From Pseudomonas sp. (lineage in GTDB: Bacteria; Pseudomonadota; Gammaproteobacteria; Pseudomonadales; Pseudomonadaceae), in the NCBI RefSeq assembly GCF_030698175.1, contig NZ_JAUYNT010000018.1, positions 124,001 to 188,000 of the forward strand: a stretch of 64,000 nt of DNA, written 5' to 3'. The notes beneath the pieces were generated by a model. That model had not been told where the DNA came from and ran no database searches. It saw only the letters and a list, made by a program, of their open reading frames with translations. Position 1 is the first letter of the stretch; the number at the start of each line of letters is the position of its first letter. A program made the position numbers and the translations under genes. Below, piece by piece: positions 1-30,612 of the stretch.

Positions 1-3
1 GCT

Positions 4-87
4 GGTGGACAAGTAAACGTTGTCCACCCTACATCGCTCTCAAGTCCGCTAGGGTGGGAAACCGCGAAGCGTTTCCCACCGTGTAGA
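4..87. repeat. Two short intergenic palindromes
   Basis: Two hairpin-forming units lie side by side. One has GGTGGAC facing GTCCACC and ends in CCCTACA. The other has AGGGTGGGAAAC facing GTTTCCCACC. They resemble the GTAGGGTGG-type repeats found elsewhere in the window. No gene is seen in the 320 bases before the first CDS. The rest of that stretch is AT-richer and presumably carries the promoter of the helicase operon. Confidence 0.6.
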
Positions 88-320
88 TGCCCAGGCTACT
101 CGCTGCCGGCCGTAACAGACCGCAATCGGCCAAAAGCTGCCCATCGAAACTGTCTACGAAACCAAGGTCTATTCACTTTAAGCGTCGGCTGTTTTCCAAA
201 AACGATGTTTAGAGTACGGTAAATAAATCTACCCCCTTTGCCTCAGAGACTTAATACTCTGCTCCGGCATGCTTGGGGCAATGCTCACATCAGTAATGAT
301 ATGGATAGCTAGGGGACGCG

Positions 321-2567
321 ATGCAAGTTGCAGATTTCAGGTTGGTGGATGACCTGAGCCATAAAGATTTTGAGCACTTTGTGAAGGATCTGCTGCTTGC
401 CTCGGGCTGGCAGGAAGCAGTGGTCACAGAGACTGGCAGCGAATATCGCTACGGTGATGGTGGGGTGGACATCTTTGCCTACCGCGACGGACGTAAGTTT
501 GCAGTAGAGGTAAAACAACGCCAGCTGAACACTACGGTGGACGTCAGCGCTCTAAACCAATTGGTCACCGGGGCTCGGCTCGCAAATGTGAAACTGATGA
601 TCTTGGTCACCAACTCGTACTTCACCTCCGAGGTCAAAGTCCGGGCTTTGCGCTTAGGTGTTGAACTGATTGACCGGGACGCGTTGAAGAACTTGTTTGT
701 GGTTCGCGGCTCGGAGATCGGCCGAAGGATTAAGCCGCGCGAATATCAGGTTGAGGTCATTCAACAGGCACTGGAACACTTCGATACAGGCAAACGAAGA
801 CTGCTGATCGAGATGGCAACCGGCCTGGGAAAAACTTACACCGTTGCGTTACTGATCAAACAATTGCTCGAACGTGCTGAGGTTAGGCCGCGCGTTCTGT
901 TTCTCGCTCATCAGATCGAGATTCTGTTGCAGTCGGTGACCGCCTTCAAGAACGTGTTGGGTTTGGGGAGTTACAGCTTTTCTGCCTGCTTCGCGGGTTC
1001 TCGGCCTGAGAATACTGACTTGGTCTTTGCCAGCTTTGACACACTGTATGGCCAACTGGGCGACCTGGCGGCGGGTAGCTTTGATTACGTAATCGTCGAC
1101 GAAGCGCACCACACGCCGGCCAGAACCTATGCGAGCGTTGTGGCGCACTTCCAACCCCGTCTGCTTATTGGCCTTACAGCAACGCCTTGGCGCACCGATA
1201 ACAAAAGCGTTAGTGAATTCTTCGGCGGCGCGGACGGCCATATTGGCCGCTATGACCTGATCTGGGGGCTGCAGCATAAGAAACTGGCGTTTCCCAAGTA
1301 CTTGGTTTTGCTCGATGACATTGACCAGGATCGCATTGACCAACTGGAGAGTGGTCTGTCGATTTCGGATCTGGATAAACGGCTTTTCCTGCATAAGAAG
1401 GATCAAGAAGTCGTGCGCCTGATTGAGGCTACGATCAAACAGAAGCAGTTGAGTAACGTAAAGGGCATCGTCTTCTGTCGGAACATCAGACATCTTCGGC
1501 ACCTGCTCGGTTTCTTCGAAGCTGGTACCGCCACCAGCGTGCATTCGCGCATGCTGGATGCAGAACGCAGAGAAAATATCCGGCAATTCCGCGAAGGCGA
1601 ACTCAAGTACATCTTGGTATGCGATCTGTTCAATGAGGGGATCGATATCCCTGAAACCAATCTGCTGGTGTTCATGCGATACACGGGTTCGAAAACCGTG
1701 TGGCTGCAACAGTTAGGGCGCGGCCTACGCAAAACCAAAAACAAAGATTGTGTTCATGTGCTCGACTTTGTGGGATCTCTGGACCGCTTGAAGGATGTTC
1801 AGCAGTTGGTCAAGGCTGTGCGCAGCAAGCCAAGAAAAAGGCTGACTGAGGACGATCTGGATGAGGCCCGTGATGATCAACACGATCTGCACGATGACAC
1901 TATTGAAGTGACTTACAGCCAGTCGGCTGCGCGCGTGCTTGACCTGATCGAACGCCTGAGATACCGGCTCAATAGCCGTGAGGAAATGGTCGAGCAGCTT
2001 AGGCGTTATCAGAACGCCACCGGTAACGTACCGTCAATTGAGGCACTGGAAAGCAGCCTGGAAGACCTTTCTGTGGACCAGGTAGCTACGCACTTTGACT
2101 CCTATCAAGGGTATCTCCAGGCCGCGTTCGGCTGGGACATCGATACCGCTGCCATCAATAAAGAAGTAGCTAGAGCCTACAGGGGCTATCAGGAGAAGCA
2201 CGGGGTGCCACCCAGCCCGAAGGCGCTGTCGTTGGAATTCCAGTACAAGACGCTGCCGTGGTTTACCGCAACGGAAATGGCTCGCTCAATCGCCAGGCTA
2301 ACGCCGACACAGGTGCTCGATACCATTGCTCAGGGCGCGCTAGCGGCTCCTGAACCGGGGGGGATTACAGCGCAGGCCACAGCAGTCGTTCAGTCTGTCT
2401 CTGCTCCTGTGCTACCTGAGGATCGGGCACAGCTTGAGCTGCTCGCAAAATATCGCGGAGTTGTCAGCAGCCGCGCGGATCTGTTGACGCTATCCAAAGA
2501 GCAACTCGACCTAATAACCGCCGTGTTTCGTTCCACATCGGTGTTTTTGGTGCGGTTGAGAGGTTAG
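321..2567 (+). CDS. Mrr-like nuclease / DEAH-box helicase fusion, putative defence protein
   Basis: This 748-residue protein joins a nuclease-like domain to a superfamily 2 helicase. Residues about 12-125 resemble the Mrr_cat fold, with D50 in GDGGVDI followed by E63-V-K65, a D...ExK metal site. Residues about 138-490 form the helicase: ATGLGKT (Walker A, about 166), DEAH (about 260), GLTATP (about 285) and QQLGRGLRK (motif VI, about 460). The last 250 residues are helical and not recognised. The start follows AGGGGA. The next gene begins 5 bases after the stop, so the two are very likely co-transcribed. Base composition is lower in GC than the kdp genes. A role in cutting foreign DNA is inferred from the architecture; a repair helicase is the alternative. 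Confidence 0.85.
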   Translation: MQVADFRLVDDLSHKDFEHFVKDLLLASGWQEAVVTETGSEYRYGDGGVDIFAYRDGRKFAVEVKQRQLNTTVDVSALNQLVTGARLANVKLMILVTNSYFTSEVKVRALRLGVELIDRDALKNLFVVRGSEIGRRIKPREYQVEVIQQALEHFDTGKRRLLIEMATGLGKTYTVALLIKQLLERAEVRPRVLFLAHQIEILLQSVTAFKNVLGLGSYSFSACFAGSRPENTDLVFASFDTLYGQLGDLAAGSFDYVIVDEAHHTPARTYASVVAHFQPRLLIGLTATPWRTDNKSVSEFFGGADGHIGRYDLIWGLQHKKLAFPKYLVLLDDIDQDRIDQLESGLSISDLDKRLFLHKKDQEVVRLIEATIKQKQLSNVKGIVFCRNIRHLRHLLGFFEAGTATSVHSRMLDAERRENIRQFREGELKYILVCDLFNEGIDIPETNLLVFMRYTGSKTVWLQQLGRGLRKTKNKDCVHVLDFVGSLDRLKDVQQLVKAVRSKPRKRLTEDDLDEARDDQHDLHDDTIEVTYSQSAARVLDLIERLRYRLNSREEMVEQLRRYQNATGNVPSIEALESSLEDLSVDQVATHFDSYQGYLQAAFGWDIDTAAINKEVARAYRGYQEKHGVPPSPKALSLEFQYKTLPWFTATEMARSIARLTPTQVLDTIAQGALAAPEPGGITAQATAVVQSVSAPVLPEDRAQLELLAKYRGVVSSRADLLTLSKEQLDLITAVFRSTSVFLVRLRG

Positions 2568-2572
2568 TAGAA

Positions 2573-5089
2573 ATGCACGTTTTATCCGAAATGACGACAG
2601 CTGCTCGCTCGCTGAAAGCGCAGATGATCGCAGCAGGCCTACTCCCTGCAACCGAAACGTCGGGACGCCTAGATATCCTGATCGCCAAACTGGATGTTGA
2701 AGACTTTCTTAGTTTGCGTGCGCTTCCAGCTTTCTGGGAGCTGCTGGCTTTTTGGCAGATTCCGGCCGATATCGAGCAACCGTCTACGTCGCAGAAGGAA
2801 CAGGGAGTGCTCACGTTCGCAGATGAGCAGCAACACCGCACACTCAATCCCCCCCCCCTTAGCTATCACGCGGACGTGAAGGCGGGGTCTTCAGCGACTG
2901 ACGTTCCGCCACGTCTCCCACATCCTCAGACTCTGATCGGTGATGTGCAACTCGGTGGCCGCTTCGACAAATTGATTGCCCGACTGTGCCGTAGCGCGAG
3001 CCGCAGTGCTGGAGTCACGGTCACCTTCGAGCGGCTTGAGGATATTTTGAACCTGCCCGTAGAAGGCCTGCTCAGGCTTGATGGAGTCGGTAAAGCCTAC
3101 AGGGATGACTGGCAGGAGCTCAAGGTCCTGTATATCCAGGCAGCCGAGTTTCTGCCTGTGCCACCAGATTTGTCAGGCGTCGTTGATCCTCTCGAACTCG
3201 TTCGAGAGGACATGCGACTCAATTTGACGCAGTTAGACGCTGCTGACCTTAAAGTCATTGCCAAGCTTGAGCGCGTTATAGGTCGTGCTGACATCAGGAC
3301 TATTTTGAGCTTCGACTCATTGGAGCAAGATGCGACAGGTTCGCTGGTCGGTCGCACAAGAAGCCAGCTATTACAGGTGCGGGAACGTTTGGCTGCCGAG
3401 CTTCAGCTCATTACAACGGGCACTCTGGACTATCACACTGCCCCAACCTCGTTGATTACCTCCACGGCGCAATCGTTTGCATCGGTGGCGGAATTGGGTG
3501 GGTTTCTGCTGGATCGGGTGGATACTTTTCTGGCGACGCTTGATGAGAAAAGCCAGCTGATCTTCCAGCACCGTTGGGGATTCGTTGACGAGCGCCTGAC
3601 GCTTTCGGAAATTGGCAAAAAATATGCTGTTTCCCGAGAGCGCATCCGCCAATTGGAAAGCAAGATTAACGAGCGGCTCAATGGCTATCTTGCTCTGGAT
3701 TCCGCCGAGATTTGGCGCGCAGTAACAAGTCTGTCGCAGGAAACGCTGCACCTAGAGATGGCAGATCTGTCCGAATGCTTTGCGGAACAGGCCCACTTCC
3801 ATGATTTTTTGGCATTCGTTAGCCATGGCCGTATCGTCTCTACTGTCTCTTCGACACACCCGCCACTGGCAATACTTGATGGGTACTTCGCCCTGTATGG
3901 CGCGGCTGTTGATCAGCTGGTTGTCCTTCAATATTTGCAACAAGAGCTGGGCGGGGATGAAAAGGATGCATCCAATGCGTTGCAATTCCTACATGCCAAA
4001 GCTCAAGTGGCATTCGAGAGCGGGAAAGTACTCCCGCTGAATCTAGGAAAGCACGAGGCGGCAGCGGCAGTGCTCAGTGAACACCCTAACGGCCTACCAT
4101 GGCTGGATATTGCCCGACACGCGAACAGACGCGGTATATCCCGCAGTTCGTTTTCAGAGCAGACCAGTGGCCATGGATTGCAGGATTCGGCACTTATGTA
4201 TGTCGCCGGCAAAGGAGTCTACAGACATACCCGGTACGTCGATTTTTCCACCGTCGACAAACCCGCCATTTTCCAAGCCCTGCATACCTACTTCGCTACT
4301 TCTGCACGGGAGGTGTCGCATTTAAGCGAGGCCCATGCAGGTTTACCGGAGCTGCGTAAACATGACTACTACATCCTTCGCTATGTAGTGAAGATGCACG
4401 GAGAAGACTACGGAATTTATTTCAACGGTAAATCGCAGACCGACTCCATAAGTCTGAATCCGGCGTTCGACTTGTACTCGCAAAAAAGTGTAATTCTGCA
4501 CTCGATGCGACAAAGACTAGGGCCTTTAACCAGCAACGAGGTGGCGCAACTTTTGAAAAGCCGTAGTTCGCGACACGCAAAGTTTTATCTCAGCGAGTTA
4601 ATGTTCACCAATCAGGTCGTGCAGGTAGACCGTATGCTTTACACCACTCCGGAGCATGCTTACGAAAACATCGACCTAGATGCAATGCGGCATGCGATAG
4701 AGTCGGTGTTACGAAGCCACGACAAGCCTGTAGACCCCTCAATCATTCAATATGAGCTGAATGCGTTGCAGGGCGAAGCCTACTCAAAATACTTCTACAG
4801 TTCGCTTGCTCGCTTTTTCGCCCAACTCGGGCATTGGCAACGCCGCCACAGCCTGTTCGCTCTGCAGCCTATTTCCTTTGCTAGTTTGACAGACGCGATC
4901 GATACGCTTTGTAAGCCAGATGATAGCCTCGAGCAGAACCTTCAATCGCTACGCTTGCATATTGCGATCAACGAGGAGGCTGCCAGAGTATCCCTCTATA
5001 ACTGGAAAGCCGCGAAGGCACGACTGGCCGCTGGTGTAGGCGTACCTGAAGTGGAAGATGAATTAGAGGGTGAGTTGGAAATCGACTGA
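2573..5089 (+). CDS. Large protein with sigma-70 region 4-like helix-turn-helix
   Basis: This 838-residue protein has no full-length family that I recognise. Residues about 330-370 contain LTLSEIGKKYAVSRERIRQL, very close to the -35-binding helix-turn-helix of sigma-70 region 4. No regions 1-3 are visible, so it is not a sigma factor. Residues about 155-185 (LLRLDGVGKAY) look like a helix-hairpin-helix similar to the RNA polymerase alpha C-terminal domain. Two later segments (about 500-560 and 640-690) could be winged helices of the HARE-HTH type. A run of ten C (2849-2858) lies in an apparent linker near residue 94. It is the partner of the helicase 5 bases upstream. A role as DNA or transcription-complex sensor is only inference. 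Confidence 0.6.
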   Translation: MHVLSEMTTAARSLKAQMIAAGLLPATETSGRLDILIAKLDVEDFLSLRALPAFWELLAFWQIPADIEQPSTSQKEQGVLTFADEQQHRTLNPPPLSYHADVKAGSSATDVPPRLPHPQTLIGDVQLGGRFDKLIARLCRSASRSAGVTVTFERLEDILNLPVEGLLRLDGVGKAYRDDWQELKVLYIQAAEFLPVPPDLSGVVDPLELVREDMRLNLTQLDAADLKVIAKLERVIGRADIRTILSFDSLEQDATGSLVGRTRSQLLQVRERLAAELQLITTGTLDYHTAPTSLITSTAQSFASVAELGGFLLDRVDTFLATLDEKSQLIFQHRWGFVDERLTLSEIGKKYAVSRERIRQLESKINERLNGYLALDSAEIWRAVTSLSQETLHLEMADLSECFAEQAHFHDFLAFVSHGRIVSTVSSTHPPLAILDGYFALYGAAVDQLVVLQYLQQELGGDEKDASNALQFLHAKAQVAFESGKVLPLNLGKHEAAAAVLSEHPNGLPWLDIARHANRRGISRSSFSEQTSGHGLQDSALMYVAGKGVYRHTRYVDFSTVDKPAIFQALHTYFATSAREVSHLSEAHAGLPELRKHDYYILRYVVKMHGEDYGIYFNGKSQTDSISLNPAFDLYSQKSVILHSMRQRLGPLTSNEVAQLLKSRSSRHAKFYLSELMFTNQVVQVDRMLYTTPEHAYENIDLDAMRHAIESVLRSHDKPVDPSIIQYELNALQGEAYSKYFYSSLARFFAQLGHWQRRHSLFALQPISFASLTDAIDTLCKPDDSLEQNLQSLRLHIAINEEAARVSLYNWKAAKARLAAGVGVPEVEDELEGELEID
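2849..2858 (+). repeat. C10 homopolymer inside coding sequence
   Basis: Ten consecutive C bases encode Pro-Pro-Pro and the first base of Leu at about residues 94-97 of the region-4-like protein. The reading frame is open as given. A change of one base in this tract would truncate the protein early, so it is a possible slippage (phase-variation) site. Confidence 0.8.
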
Positions 5090-5311
5090 AATTGTGTAGG
5101 TAAATCAGCTCCTGGAGCGCTAAACAGCTGCTCTAGTGGCCTAGCCCGTTAACCTCTAAACGAATAGGCCCTGCCGCCCTAGAGACCTTAAGGCCCCAAA
5201 ATTAGCTTCACACTCAGTCAGCTTTTGGCCATTCATAGTCTGTCGCGACCGGCAGCTCTTGGCCGACAGCAGCCAGTCATAACCTGCTGCGATCAAACCA
5301 ATACAGGCCTC

Positions 5312-28650: not shown

Positions 28651-30612
28651 ATGCTGTCTGCCGCCCGGCGCTACAAGCTGCTCATCTCCAGAGCGCTGGC
28701 GCGTTACTTTCCGCGTACCACCGAGTATTTGCGTGCCGAGGGCAAGGCGGCGTTGCTGCACGACCAGCCCCGCCCACGGCTGAGCAAAGCCAGTGCGCCA
28801 CTGCCCAAGGGCAAAACACCCAGTACCAGGGTTGTGAAAAAACCGGCCAAACCACGGACGAAAACCACTCAAACCAGCACAGCCATTTATGGCCCGGCAC
28901 TCATGGCGGTCGATGAGCCACAGATTGCGGCGATGCGTTTGCGGATAAGCCAGGCAGTGAGCGCGGGCCTGATCAGCGCGCCTTCGGATGAGCAGTGGGC
29001 GATGATCCTCGGGCGTAGTCCGCTGACTCGGGTGTTTGCCGCAGCGGGCTCGGGCAAGTCCACCACTCTGCTGCTGCGGGTGGTGTTTATGCTCTGTCAT
29101 TTAGGGATTGAGCCGGCGCAGCTGACGGTGATTTCCTTTACCAATGCCTCCTGCGCGCAACTGCGCGAGCAGCTGTTGAAGCTGCTGGGTTTCTGGCAGT
29201 TTACCTTCGATGCCAGCCAGGCCCGGCAATGCGTGCGCACCTTTCATTCGGCCATGGGCGGGCTGGCCAAAGAGGCGCTGGGCAATCCCCGTTGGTTCGA
29301 GCAACTGAGCAGCAGCGCCGCCAACAGCGAACTGGATAATCCGCTGACCAGCAGCCGCCTGCGCCCCGCCCAACTGGCCCTGCTCAAACAGGCGTATCAG
29401 CATTGTTATGAACAGCAGCCGGAGTTTCGCCAACTGGTACACGGCCTGCTGGGCTTGCCGGCGCCACTGGCAATGGACGACGCAACCAAGAGCAAACGGG
29501 TGCTCAAGGCGCCGCTGGACGCATACCAACTGGCCGGCGAATTTACCCCGTTGCCGCTGTTCGAAGCCTTCTACCTGCAGGCCGGATTTATCCAGAGCAT
29601 CGGCATTCGCATCGATCAGCTGCAGGCTGAAGCACTGCCTTGCGCCGCTCAAGAACGCAGCTTTATCCAAGCACTGGTCTTGTTTTGGCAGCGCTTCGAG
29701 CAACTGCTGGACGAGCAAGGTTTGCTGACTTTCGACGCGGCCTTTGCCCAGCTCAGCGACCGCCTGAATGCCGGCACGCCGCAACTGTCCGCCGCTGCAT
29801 TGGCGCCCTTCAGCCATCTGTTGATCGATGAATTTCAGGACATCTCGCCGCAAATCGTCCAGTGGCTGAATGCCGTGCAGCGGGCGTTGGTGCGTCAGGG
29901 CACGGCGGTTAGTCTGATGGCCATCGGTGACGACTGGCAGTCGATCTATGGCTGGCGCGGCAGTTCGCCGGAGCTGTTTATCGACTTCGACAAGCACTTC
30001 CCAGGCTTGGGTAAAGCGAGCAAAAGCGCAGTGTTGCTGCTGCAAAACAACTACCGCTCGATTGAGCCGATCATCCGCGACGGCGAGGCGGTGCTGGCCG
30101 GTGTTAGTCACAAGCAGGCGAAAACCAGCAACGCCGTCAGGGCCACTCAAACGGGAGATCATGGGGTTAAGTTGGTGACCCAGTTCGAGCTGAAAACCCG
30201 GCTTCCCGAGCTGTTGGCCGAGATCCAAGCCCAGTGCGCCCACGTCGCCAGCAGCACCAGCCGCGAACGCACCAGCGTGCTGCTATTGAGTCGCAGCAAC
30301 GCCAGCTTGCAGCTGGTGCGCGGCCAGCTCGACCAGCAGTTGCCGGTCAAAGCCTGCACCATCCACGGCGCCAAAGGCTTGCAAGCCGAAGTGGCGATCA
30401 TCCTCGACGACTGCCTGCCGCCCACCCCGCACCCGCTGCGCGATGCGCTCTATGCCTACTCGGGATTTTTCCAGAACAGCTACGGGCAAGCCATGCAGGA
30501 TGAGAGCCTGCGCCTGGCCTATGTGGCGATTACCCGCGGAGTCAGCCGGGTACTCTGGTACTGCAATAAACCCCAAGGGGCGGTGCAGATCTTGCGCAAG
30601 CGGGGGCGCTAA
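28651..30612 (+). CDS. UvrD/Rep-type ATP-dependent DNA helicase
   Basis: A 653-residue superfamily 1A helicase. All main motifs are seen: AAAGSGKSTT (Walker A, about 131), ISFTNASCAQLREQL (Ia), LIDEFQDISP (Walker B, about 391), AIGDDWQSIYGWRG (III), NNYRS (IV), TIHGAKGLQAEVAII (V) and YVAITRG (VI). About 110 residues before Walker A are basic and probably bind DNA; this extension is longer than in UvrD or Rep. The total length is close to Rep but the arrangement suggests a different subgroup. The start follows GGAGGGG. The role is presumably in DNA repair or removal of protein blocks, unproven. Confidence 0.9.
   Translation: MLSAARRYKLLISRALARYFPRTTEYLRAEGKAALLHDQPRPRLSKASAPLPKGKTPSTRVVKKPAKPRTKTTQTSTAIYGPALMAVDEPQIAAMRLRISQAVSAGLISAPSDEQWAMILGRSPLTRVFAAAGSGKSTTLLLRVVFMLCHLGIEPAQLTVISFTNASCAQLREQLLKLLGFWQFTFDASQARQCVRTFHSAMGGLAKEALGNPRWFEQLSSSAANSELDNPLTSSRLRPAQLALLKQAYQHCYEQQPEFRQLVHGLLGLPAPLAMDDATKSKRVLKAPLDAYQLAGEFTPLPLFEAFYLQAGFIQSIGIRIDQLQAEALPCAAQERSFIQALVLFWQRFEQLLDEQGLLTFDAAFAQLSDRLNAGTPQLSAAALAPFSHLLIDEFQDISPQIVQWLNAVQRALVRQGTAVSLMAIGDDWQSIYGWRGSSPELFIDFDKHFPGLGKASKSAVLLLQNNYRSIEPIIRDGEAVLAGVSHKQAKTSNAVRATQTGDHGVKLVTQFELKTRLPELLAEIQAQCAHVASSTSRERTSVLLLSRSNASLQLVRGQLDQQLPVKACTIHGAKGLQAEVAIILDDCLPPTPHPLRDALYAYSGFFQNSYGQAMQDESLRLAYVAITRGVSRVLWYCNKPQGAVQILRKRGR

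What the first reader, a model, noticed from the sequence alone, without database searches (positions are those of the whole stretch)
321..5089. Two-gene candidate defence system: Mrr-helicase plus a sigma-region-4-like protein
A fused D...ExK nuclease/DEAH helicase is followed 5 bases later by an 838-residue protein with a sigma-70 region 4 helix-turn-helix, a possible helix-hairpin-helix and possible winged helices, but no other sigma regions. Composition differs from the kdp genes. I know no named antiphage system with this pair. A sigma-4-like module could let the nuclease find foreign promoters or transcription complexes, but that is speculation.
Basis: partly seen in the sequence, partly recalled or inferred. 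Interest (0 to 1): 0.8.

Follow-up and report, generated by a model that had tools for sequence, protein, structure and literature searches.

The report
Nuclease-helicase paired with sigma-like DNA reader
Two neighbouring bacterial genes, one for a DNA-cutting motor and one for a large DNA-binding protein carrying the promoter-reading tip of a sigma factor, travel together between distant bacteria and probably form an undescribed antiviral system.

Summary
Gene A (321-2567, 748 aa) is an Mrr-type nuclease fused to an SF2 helicase. Gene B (2573-5089, 838 aa) carries sigma-70 region 4 and no other sigma region. Most of its C-terminal half is predicted to be tandem winged helices; two helix-hairpin-helix-like segments are marginal.

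The pair is a real, rare, mobile unit. It occurs complete, in the same order, in four lineages (the window genome, P. frederiksbergensis, another Pseudomonadaceae genus, and E. coli at one chromosomal site). The two Pseudomonas copies share a ~4.9-5.0 kb block with unrelated flanks, and both genes are under purifying selection. In three other settings the pair, or B alone, sits beside known or candidate defence genes: IetAS, a PrrC/PDC-S06-like ATPase, and a DUF4365 protein. No named system with this pair was found in PADLOC, NCBIfam or the papers searched. B is not MzaA.

The best sign of mechanism is that seven of eleven residues by which sigma-70 contacts the -35 element are invariant across five B proteins as little as 22% identical. 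Most likely B binds promoter-like DNA and loads or licenses A on invading DNA. How host promoters are spared is unknown; no methyltransferase is present. Antiphage function is untested.

The parts
181..5229 (+). Mobile cassette: block shared with P. frederiksbergensis (181-5089 and 5162-5229); flanks unrelated
   Evidence: blastn window against L003: 85.5% over 4916 bp, plus 81% over 68 bp
181..320 (+). Conserved upstream region, likely promoter/5' region of the operon; no strong sigma-70 consensus found
   Evidence: included in the shared block; promoter scan negative
321..2567 (+). Gene A, 748 aa, Mrr nuclease-SF2 helicase
   Evidence: homologues in L003 (90%), E. coli L037 (59%), L061 (50%)
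348..695 (+). Gene A Mrr_cat nuclease domain (residues 10-125), D50, E63, K65
   Evidence: Pfam E 3.8e-19; residues conserved in all four A proteins
729..1730 (+). Gene A SF2 helicase/translocase core (residues 137-470): TGLGKT 167-172, DEAH 260-263, QQLGRGLRK 463-471
   Evidence: Pfam ResIII and Helicase_C; nearest solved structure 7clg, annotated 'putative helicase', E 1.2e-45
1974..2126 (+). Gene A homing-endonuclease-associated HTH repeat (residues 552-602), marginal
   Evidence: Pfam HNH_repeat E 0.013 here, 3e-5 in the E. coli homologue, just under its cut-off
2151..2564 (+). Gene A fast-diverging C-terminal tail (residues 611-748), candidate docking site for B
   Evidence: identity to E. 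coli A 20%, against 68-77% for the nuclease and helicase parts; docking is inference
2573..5089 (+). Gene B, 838 aa, sigma-region-4 multi-domain DNA-binding protein
   Evidence: homologues at 80, 33, 33 and 23%
2933..3442 (+). Gene B two helix-hairpin-helix-like segments (about residues 121-195 and 214-290), marginal
   Evidence: HHH_5 E 0.0033 and RNA_pol_A_CTD E 0.045, one homologue each; weak mutual similarity
3530..3679 (+). Gene B sigma-70 region 4 (residues 320-369)
   Evidence: Pfam E 3.6e-12; Foldseek to SigA region 4 structures
3635..3652 (+). Recognition-helix motif RERIRQ (residues 355-360)
   Evidence: R355, E356, R357, R359, Q360 invariant in five B proteins and equal to sigma-70 R584, E585, R586, R588, Q589
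3872..4867 (+). Gene B tandem winged-helix array, four to five units (about residues 434-765)
   Evidence: AlphaFold2 model and Foldseek matches to SelB, UFL1, RPC62; medium-to-low confidence

Best explanation
The two genes are a mobile, two-component restriction-like antiphage system. B is the DNA reader: its sigma-region-4 domain recognises -35-like (TTGACA-type) promoter DNA and its other helix-rich DNA-binding modules clamp the DNA. B recruits or licenses A, which translocates on or unwinds the DNA with its SF2 motor and cuts it with its Mrr nuclease. Shown: the two proteins and their domains, conserved pairing and order, mobility, purifying selection, conservation of -35 contact residues. 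Inferred: antiphage function, A-B complex, promoter binding, recruitment and cleavage. Not explained: what spares host promoters. With no methyltransferase present, a second trigger is required, such as free ends, replication or modification of incoming DNA.
For: Pair conserved in order in four lineages, spacing 5 bp, 5 bp, 1 bp and 8-bp overlap. 85% identical cassette at unrelated sites in two Pseudomonas species; about 80 of 5,426 E. coli genomes carry it, at what appears to be one chromosomal site. Defence neighbours: IetA E 8.6e-104 and IetS E 1.3e-283 next to B in L062; PDC-S06/PrrC-like ATPase next to B in L004; DUF4365 protein (argonaute-associated REase-like) near the pair in L037. Nuclease and helicase families typical of restriction. 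Seven of 11 sigma-70 -35-contact positions are invariant against 4 of 40 other positions, p 7e-4. dN/dS 0.12 and 0.21.
Against: No phage or plasmid test exists. Thousands of host promoters would also be targets and no self-protection gene is present. The contact list of sigma-70 was taken from memory and the five B proteins are few and unevenly related. The window copy is not in a defence island. B alone survives on three IncHI1A plasmids where an IS1 removed nearly all of A (for two of them), so B is not obviously harmful or useless without A. Rarity (2 of 399 family genomes) limits statistics.
Confidence: 0.42

Rival explanations
1. Type IV-like restriction: A-B recognises modified or otherwise abnormal phage DNA, and sigma-4 is only one generic helix-turn-helix among many in B, without promoter specificity.
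For: The helicase of A is closest to Type IV enzymes (PADLOC mREase_IV E 1.7e-52; nearest solved structure 7clg E 1.2e-45, which I recall as SauUSI). It explains the absence of a methyltransferase.
Against: No modified-base reader domain was detected in A or B. A generic HTH would not be expected to keep exactly the -35-contact residues.
Confidence: 0.23
2. B is mainly a transcription factor (pseudo-sigma or repressor of the operon or of other genes), and A alone is the effector.
For: Sigma-4 and winged helices are regulatory DNA-binding modules; B can persist without A on plasmids.
Against: B is very large, follows A in the operon and is strictly paired with A in four lineages; it lacks sigma region 2 needed to open promoters. 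The operon's own upstream has no clear -35/-10.
Confidence: 0.14
3. Integrated decoy or takeover sensor: sigma-4 imitates the host sigma factor and is bound by phage anti-sigma proteins (T4 AsiA-like, phage G1 ORF67-like), or senses free beta-flap of hijacked RNA polymerase, which unleashes A.
For: Phage proteins that bind sigma region 4 are established (solved G1 ORF67-sigma-A4 complex 4g6d appears among the matches). It would solve the self/non-self problem.
Against: Region 4.1, the half mainly involved in protein contacts (from general knowledge), is poorly conserved; the DNA-contact residues are what is kept.
Confidence: 0.1
4. DNA repair or plasmid/transposon-related function rather than antiphage defence.
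For: The helicase also resembles RadD and XPB; the window and P. frederiksbergensis neighbours are not defence genes.
Against: Patchy distribution, mobility, IS-ridden sites and repeated defence neighbours are unlike housekeeping repair.
Confidence: 0.11

Closest known systems
MZA system, MzaA (sigma-70-like protein of an antiphage system)
   Same: Large defence protein with sigma region 4 (NCBIfam NF041931 E 1.2e-10 and PADLOC E 4e-6, over about 70-90 residues).
   Different: The MzaA family aligns to a full RpoD-type sigma (RpoD-like proteins reach 468-510 bits); B has only region 4 (41 bits against a cut-off of 800). Its partner here is a nuclease-helicase, not MzaBCDE.
Type IV methyl-directed restriction enzyme (SauUSI-like)
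   Same: SF2 helicase core; PADLOC E 1.7e-52; nearest solved structure 7clg, recalled as SauUSI.
   Different: Mrr nuclease at the N-terminus; no modified-base domain found; an obligate-looking second protein.
Zorya ZorD
   Same: Mrr-like nuclease joined to an SNF2-type helicase (E 3.6e-11 on the Mrr part).
   Different: Reverse domain order, only the Mrr part matches, no ZorA/ZorB nearby.
Type I restriction HsdR (EcoAI family)
   Same: Helicase core, E 4.1e-38.
   Different: 131 bits against cut-off 550; no HsdM or HsdS.
Short Mrr-helicases on plasmids beside an ATP-binding protein and, at two of three loci, a cytosine methyltransferase
   Same: 29-32% identical to the A core (H25, H27, H28).
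   Different: About 557-565 aa, lack the C-terminal 200 residues of A, no sigma-like partner.

Membership tests
MZA system | MzaA: full-length match to NF041931 (cut-off 800 bits) | tested here: not met
   41 bits, region 4 part only
MZA system | mzaBCDE genes next to it | tested here: not met
   neighbours in window, L003 and E. coli carry none by ORF reading or annotation
Type IV methyl-directed restriction (SauUSI-like) | SF2 helicase core of this type | tested here: met
   PADLOC E 1.7e-52, 7clg E 1.2e-45
Type IV methyl-directed restriction (SauUSI-like) | Recognition domain for modified bases | tested here: not met
   no such domain by Pfam in four A and five B proteins; a divergent one could be missed
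Type IV methyl-directed restriction (SauUSI-like) | Cleavage only of modified DNA | not testable with these tools
   needs biochemistry
Zorya | ZorA and ZorB membrane motor genes | tested here: not met
   absent beside all copies examined
Type I restriction-modification | HsdM and HsdS; HsdR above cut-off | tested here: not met
   131 of 550 bits; no HsdM/HsdS beside the pair
Sigma-70 factor | Regions 2 and 3 for core binding and promoter melting | tested here: not met
   only Sigma70_r4 found in all five homologues
Sigma-70 factor | -35-contact residues of region 4 | tested here: met
   7 of 11 invariant and identical to sigma-70
Antiphage defence system (general) | Protection against phage when expressed | not testable with these tools
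   no experiment available
Antiphage defence system (general) | Mobile, patchy, associated with defence genes | tested here: met
   though not in the window itself

The most novel reading that the evidence does not exclude
Promoter-directed restriction: a sigma-region-4 reader marks -35 promoter elements, or transcription complexes, of invading DNA as the loading site for a nuclease-helicase, a way of choosing targets that none of the defence families searched here is known to me to use.
Probability: 0.25. Interest if true: 0.85.

Novelty: new variant of a known kind. Interest (0 to 1): 0.57.

Why it matters
Restriction-like systems are usually aimed by a sequence-plus-methylation reader, a modified-base reader or a guide. 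A sigma-4 reader, if it really aims the nuclease, would tie defence to transcription signals that every DNA phage needs and cannot easily lose. The E. coli copies make this testable in standard laboratory hosts. Even as an ordinary restriction variant, it is a compact two-gene unit not listed in the tools searched.

Tried and rejected
MzaA membership: rejected, only region 4 matches. Region 3 of sigma in B: the PDB profile match extends to residue 220 but gains no score over region-4-only chains, so not claimed. Alpha-CTD-like repeats: suggestive by eye, statistics weak (one search used some wrong-strand sequences, and still contained one). Phage or viral homologues of B: none; viral matches to A reached only 21-34% identity, mostly to its helicase part. 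Wider sampling of class and phylum found no more copies. Joint structure of A and B could not be run; E. coli sequences were not accepted for structure prediction, so the models rest on four sequences. A precise empty site in relatives could not be defined: the 189-aa gene to the left is conserved in the genus but its right neighbour varies and is not kdp. Literature: no paper found with this pair; supplements, subscription papers and newer defence-finder databases were not searchable. I did not establish whether the E. coli site is a catalogued defence hotspot: the main text of the hotspot paper does not name these genes.

Full report
What is there. The window encodes, on the + strand, gene A (321-2567, 748 aa) and, 5 bases later, gene B (2573-5089, 838 aa). 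A has an N-terminal Mrr nuclease domain (E 3.8e-19), an SF2 helicase core (ResIII E 9.8e-35, Helicase_C E 1.8e-14) and a fast-diverging C-terminal part with a marginal homing-endonuclease-associated HTH repeat (E 0.013 here, 3e-5 in the E. coli homologue). The catalytic D50, E63, K65 and the DEAH motif are present. B has sigma-70 region 4 at residues 320-369 (E 3.6e-12) and no other sigma region. Both genes are of lower GC (53-54%) than the neighbouring kdp genes (64-68%).

Is the pair real? Yes. In P. frederiksbergensis (L003) A and B follow each other with the same 5-base gap (90% and 80% identity). In E. coli A (742 aa, 59%) and B (816 aa, 33%) are one base apart. In another genus of the same family, contig G106:C20 carries a complete A (733 aa, 50%) and B (811 aa, 23%) that overlap by 8 bases. 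A fifth B (824 aa, L062) lies at a contig start, so its upstream gene cannot be seen. Synonymous changes far outnumber amino-acid changes between the two Pseudomonas copies (dN/dS 0.12 for A, 0.21 for B).

It moves. The two Pseudomonas copies share 181-5089 at 85.5% DNA identity plus a short stretch to 5229, while the flanks are unrelated. To the left of the window copy is a 189-aa gene conserved in the genus whose right-hand neighbour in relatives is not kdp. The pair is rare: 2 of 399 genomes of the family, 2 of 392 of the order, and only the window genome itself in the class and phylum samples. Among 5,426 complete E. coli genomes 83 match B and 105 match A, many of the latter as remnants. 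In the three E. coli copies examined in context the pair lies at the same place, next to ydeT. Broken copies occur: IS elements split A in some strains, in strain C122 A is split and B is cut to about 210 residues, and on the two IncHI1A plasmids examined an IS1 has removed all but the last 19 codons of A while B is intact.

Setting. In L062, B is followed by IetA (E 8.6e-104) and IetS (E 1.3e-283), a named antiphage system. On the IncHI1A plasmids B is followed by a PDC-S06/PrrC-like ATPase and lies near integrase-type genes. In E. coli a DUF4365 protein resembling argonaute-associated nucleases lies close by. In the window and in P. frederiksbergensis the neighbours are ordinary chromosomal genes. 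I take this as moderate support for defence.

How B may work. Region 4 of sigma-70 recognises the -35 promoter element. I mapped the B sequences onto E. coli sigma-70 (sequence and contact list from general knowledge). Of 11 contact positions, seven (R562, L573, R584, E585, R586, R588, Q589) are invariant in all five B proteins and identical to sigma-70; of the other 40 positions only four are invariant (p 7e-4). These proteins are as little as 22% identical overall. That argues that B still binds -35-like DNA, and gives less support to a role of region 4 as a binding site for other proteins. The C-terminal half is predicted as four to five winged helices; the models are of low to medium confidence (mean pLDDT 54 for the whole protein, 65 for the half), and the fold matches (SelB, UFL1, RPC62) are to winged-helix arrays in general. 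Two helix-hairpin-helix-like segments before region 4 are plausible by eye but not statistically firm. Thus B looks like a large multi-contact nucleic-acid-binding protein with a promoter-reading module.

How A may work. The motor is closest to Type IV restriction helicases (PADLOC mREase_IV E 1.7e-52; nearest solved structure 7clg E 1.2e-45, recalled as SauUSI) and also resembles RadD and HsdR. The nuclease and helicase parts are highly conserved between Pseudomonas and E. coli (68-77%), whereas the last 138 residues (20%) diverge as fast as B does. This fits, but does not prove, docking of B on the tail of A.

Model. B binds promoter-like DNA and loads or licenses A, which translocates and cuts. 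The weak point is self-protection: the cassette has no methyltransferase, and host promoters carry the same signals. Some second trigger is required. The main rival is a Type IV-like system in which abnormal DNA is the trigger and region 4 is only one contact among many. A third idea, that region 4 is a decoy for phage anti-sigma proteins, would solve the self problem but fits the conservation pattern less well.

Relation to known systems. B is not MzaA: the MzaA model describes a full RpoD-like sigma factor, and B matches only region 4 (41 of 800 bits). A is not ZorD, HsdR or PbeA as defined by their models and partners. Distant short Mrr-helicases on plasmids occur with an ATP-binding protein and, at two of three loci, a cytosine methyltransferase, showing that this nuclease-motor core is used with different partners. 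The papers I could search do not name the pair; this is absence of evidence within a limited library.

Verdict. It is probably an undescribed restriction-like defence system with an unusual reader subunit. Function remains untested, and the promoter-targeting idea rests on residue conservation alone.

Noticed in passing
L062 79-7262 (G586:C25): A B homologue lies just upstream of IetA and IetS; a transposase gene is inserted between ietA and ietS, and the IetS profile match starts only at position 171, so ietS may be truncated.
   Followed up: partly
L004 14622-17133; L005 11622-14133: IncHI1A plasmids keep an intact B but only the last 19 codons of A after an IS1, so B exists there without A.
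   Followed up: partly
L111 6001-10020 (E. coli C122); also hit H78 (strain WG5::PA8): In C122 gene A is split by an IS3-family element and B is truncated at about 210 residues. WG5::PA8 also has A split by the same kind of element. I recall both as coliphage host strains.
   Followed up: partly
L039 4610-9205; L040 4515-9174; L041 3386-9144: Short Mrr-helicases lie between an ATP-binding protein of about 750-790 aa and a small protein of about 175-200 aa, with a cytosine methyltransferase nearby at two of the three loci: possibly another uncharacterised restriction-like module.
   Followed up: no
window 1-100: Short inverted, REP-like sequence at the left edge; parts of the left flank recur at several places in the genome and in relatives.
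   Followed up: no
window 28651-30612 (+): A 653-aa ORF that looks like a UvrD/Rep-type helicase; not examined.
   Followed up: no
L060 11362-11931 (just left of the window): 189-aa gene of unknown function conserved across many species of the genus, whose right-hand neighbour differs between species.
   Followed up: partly
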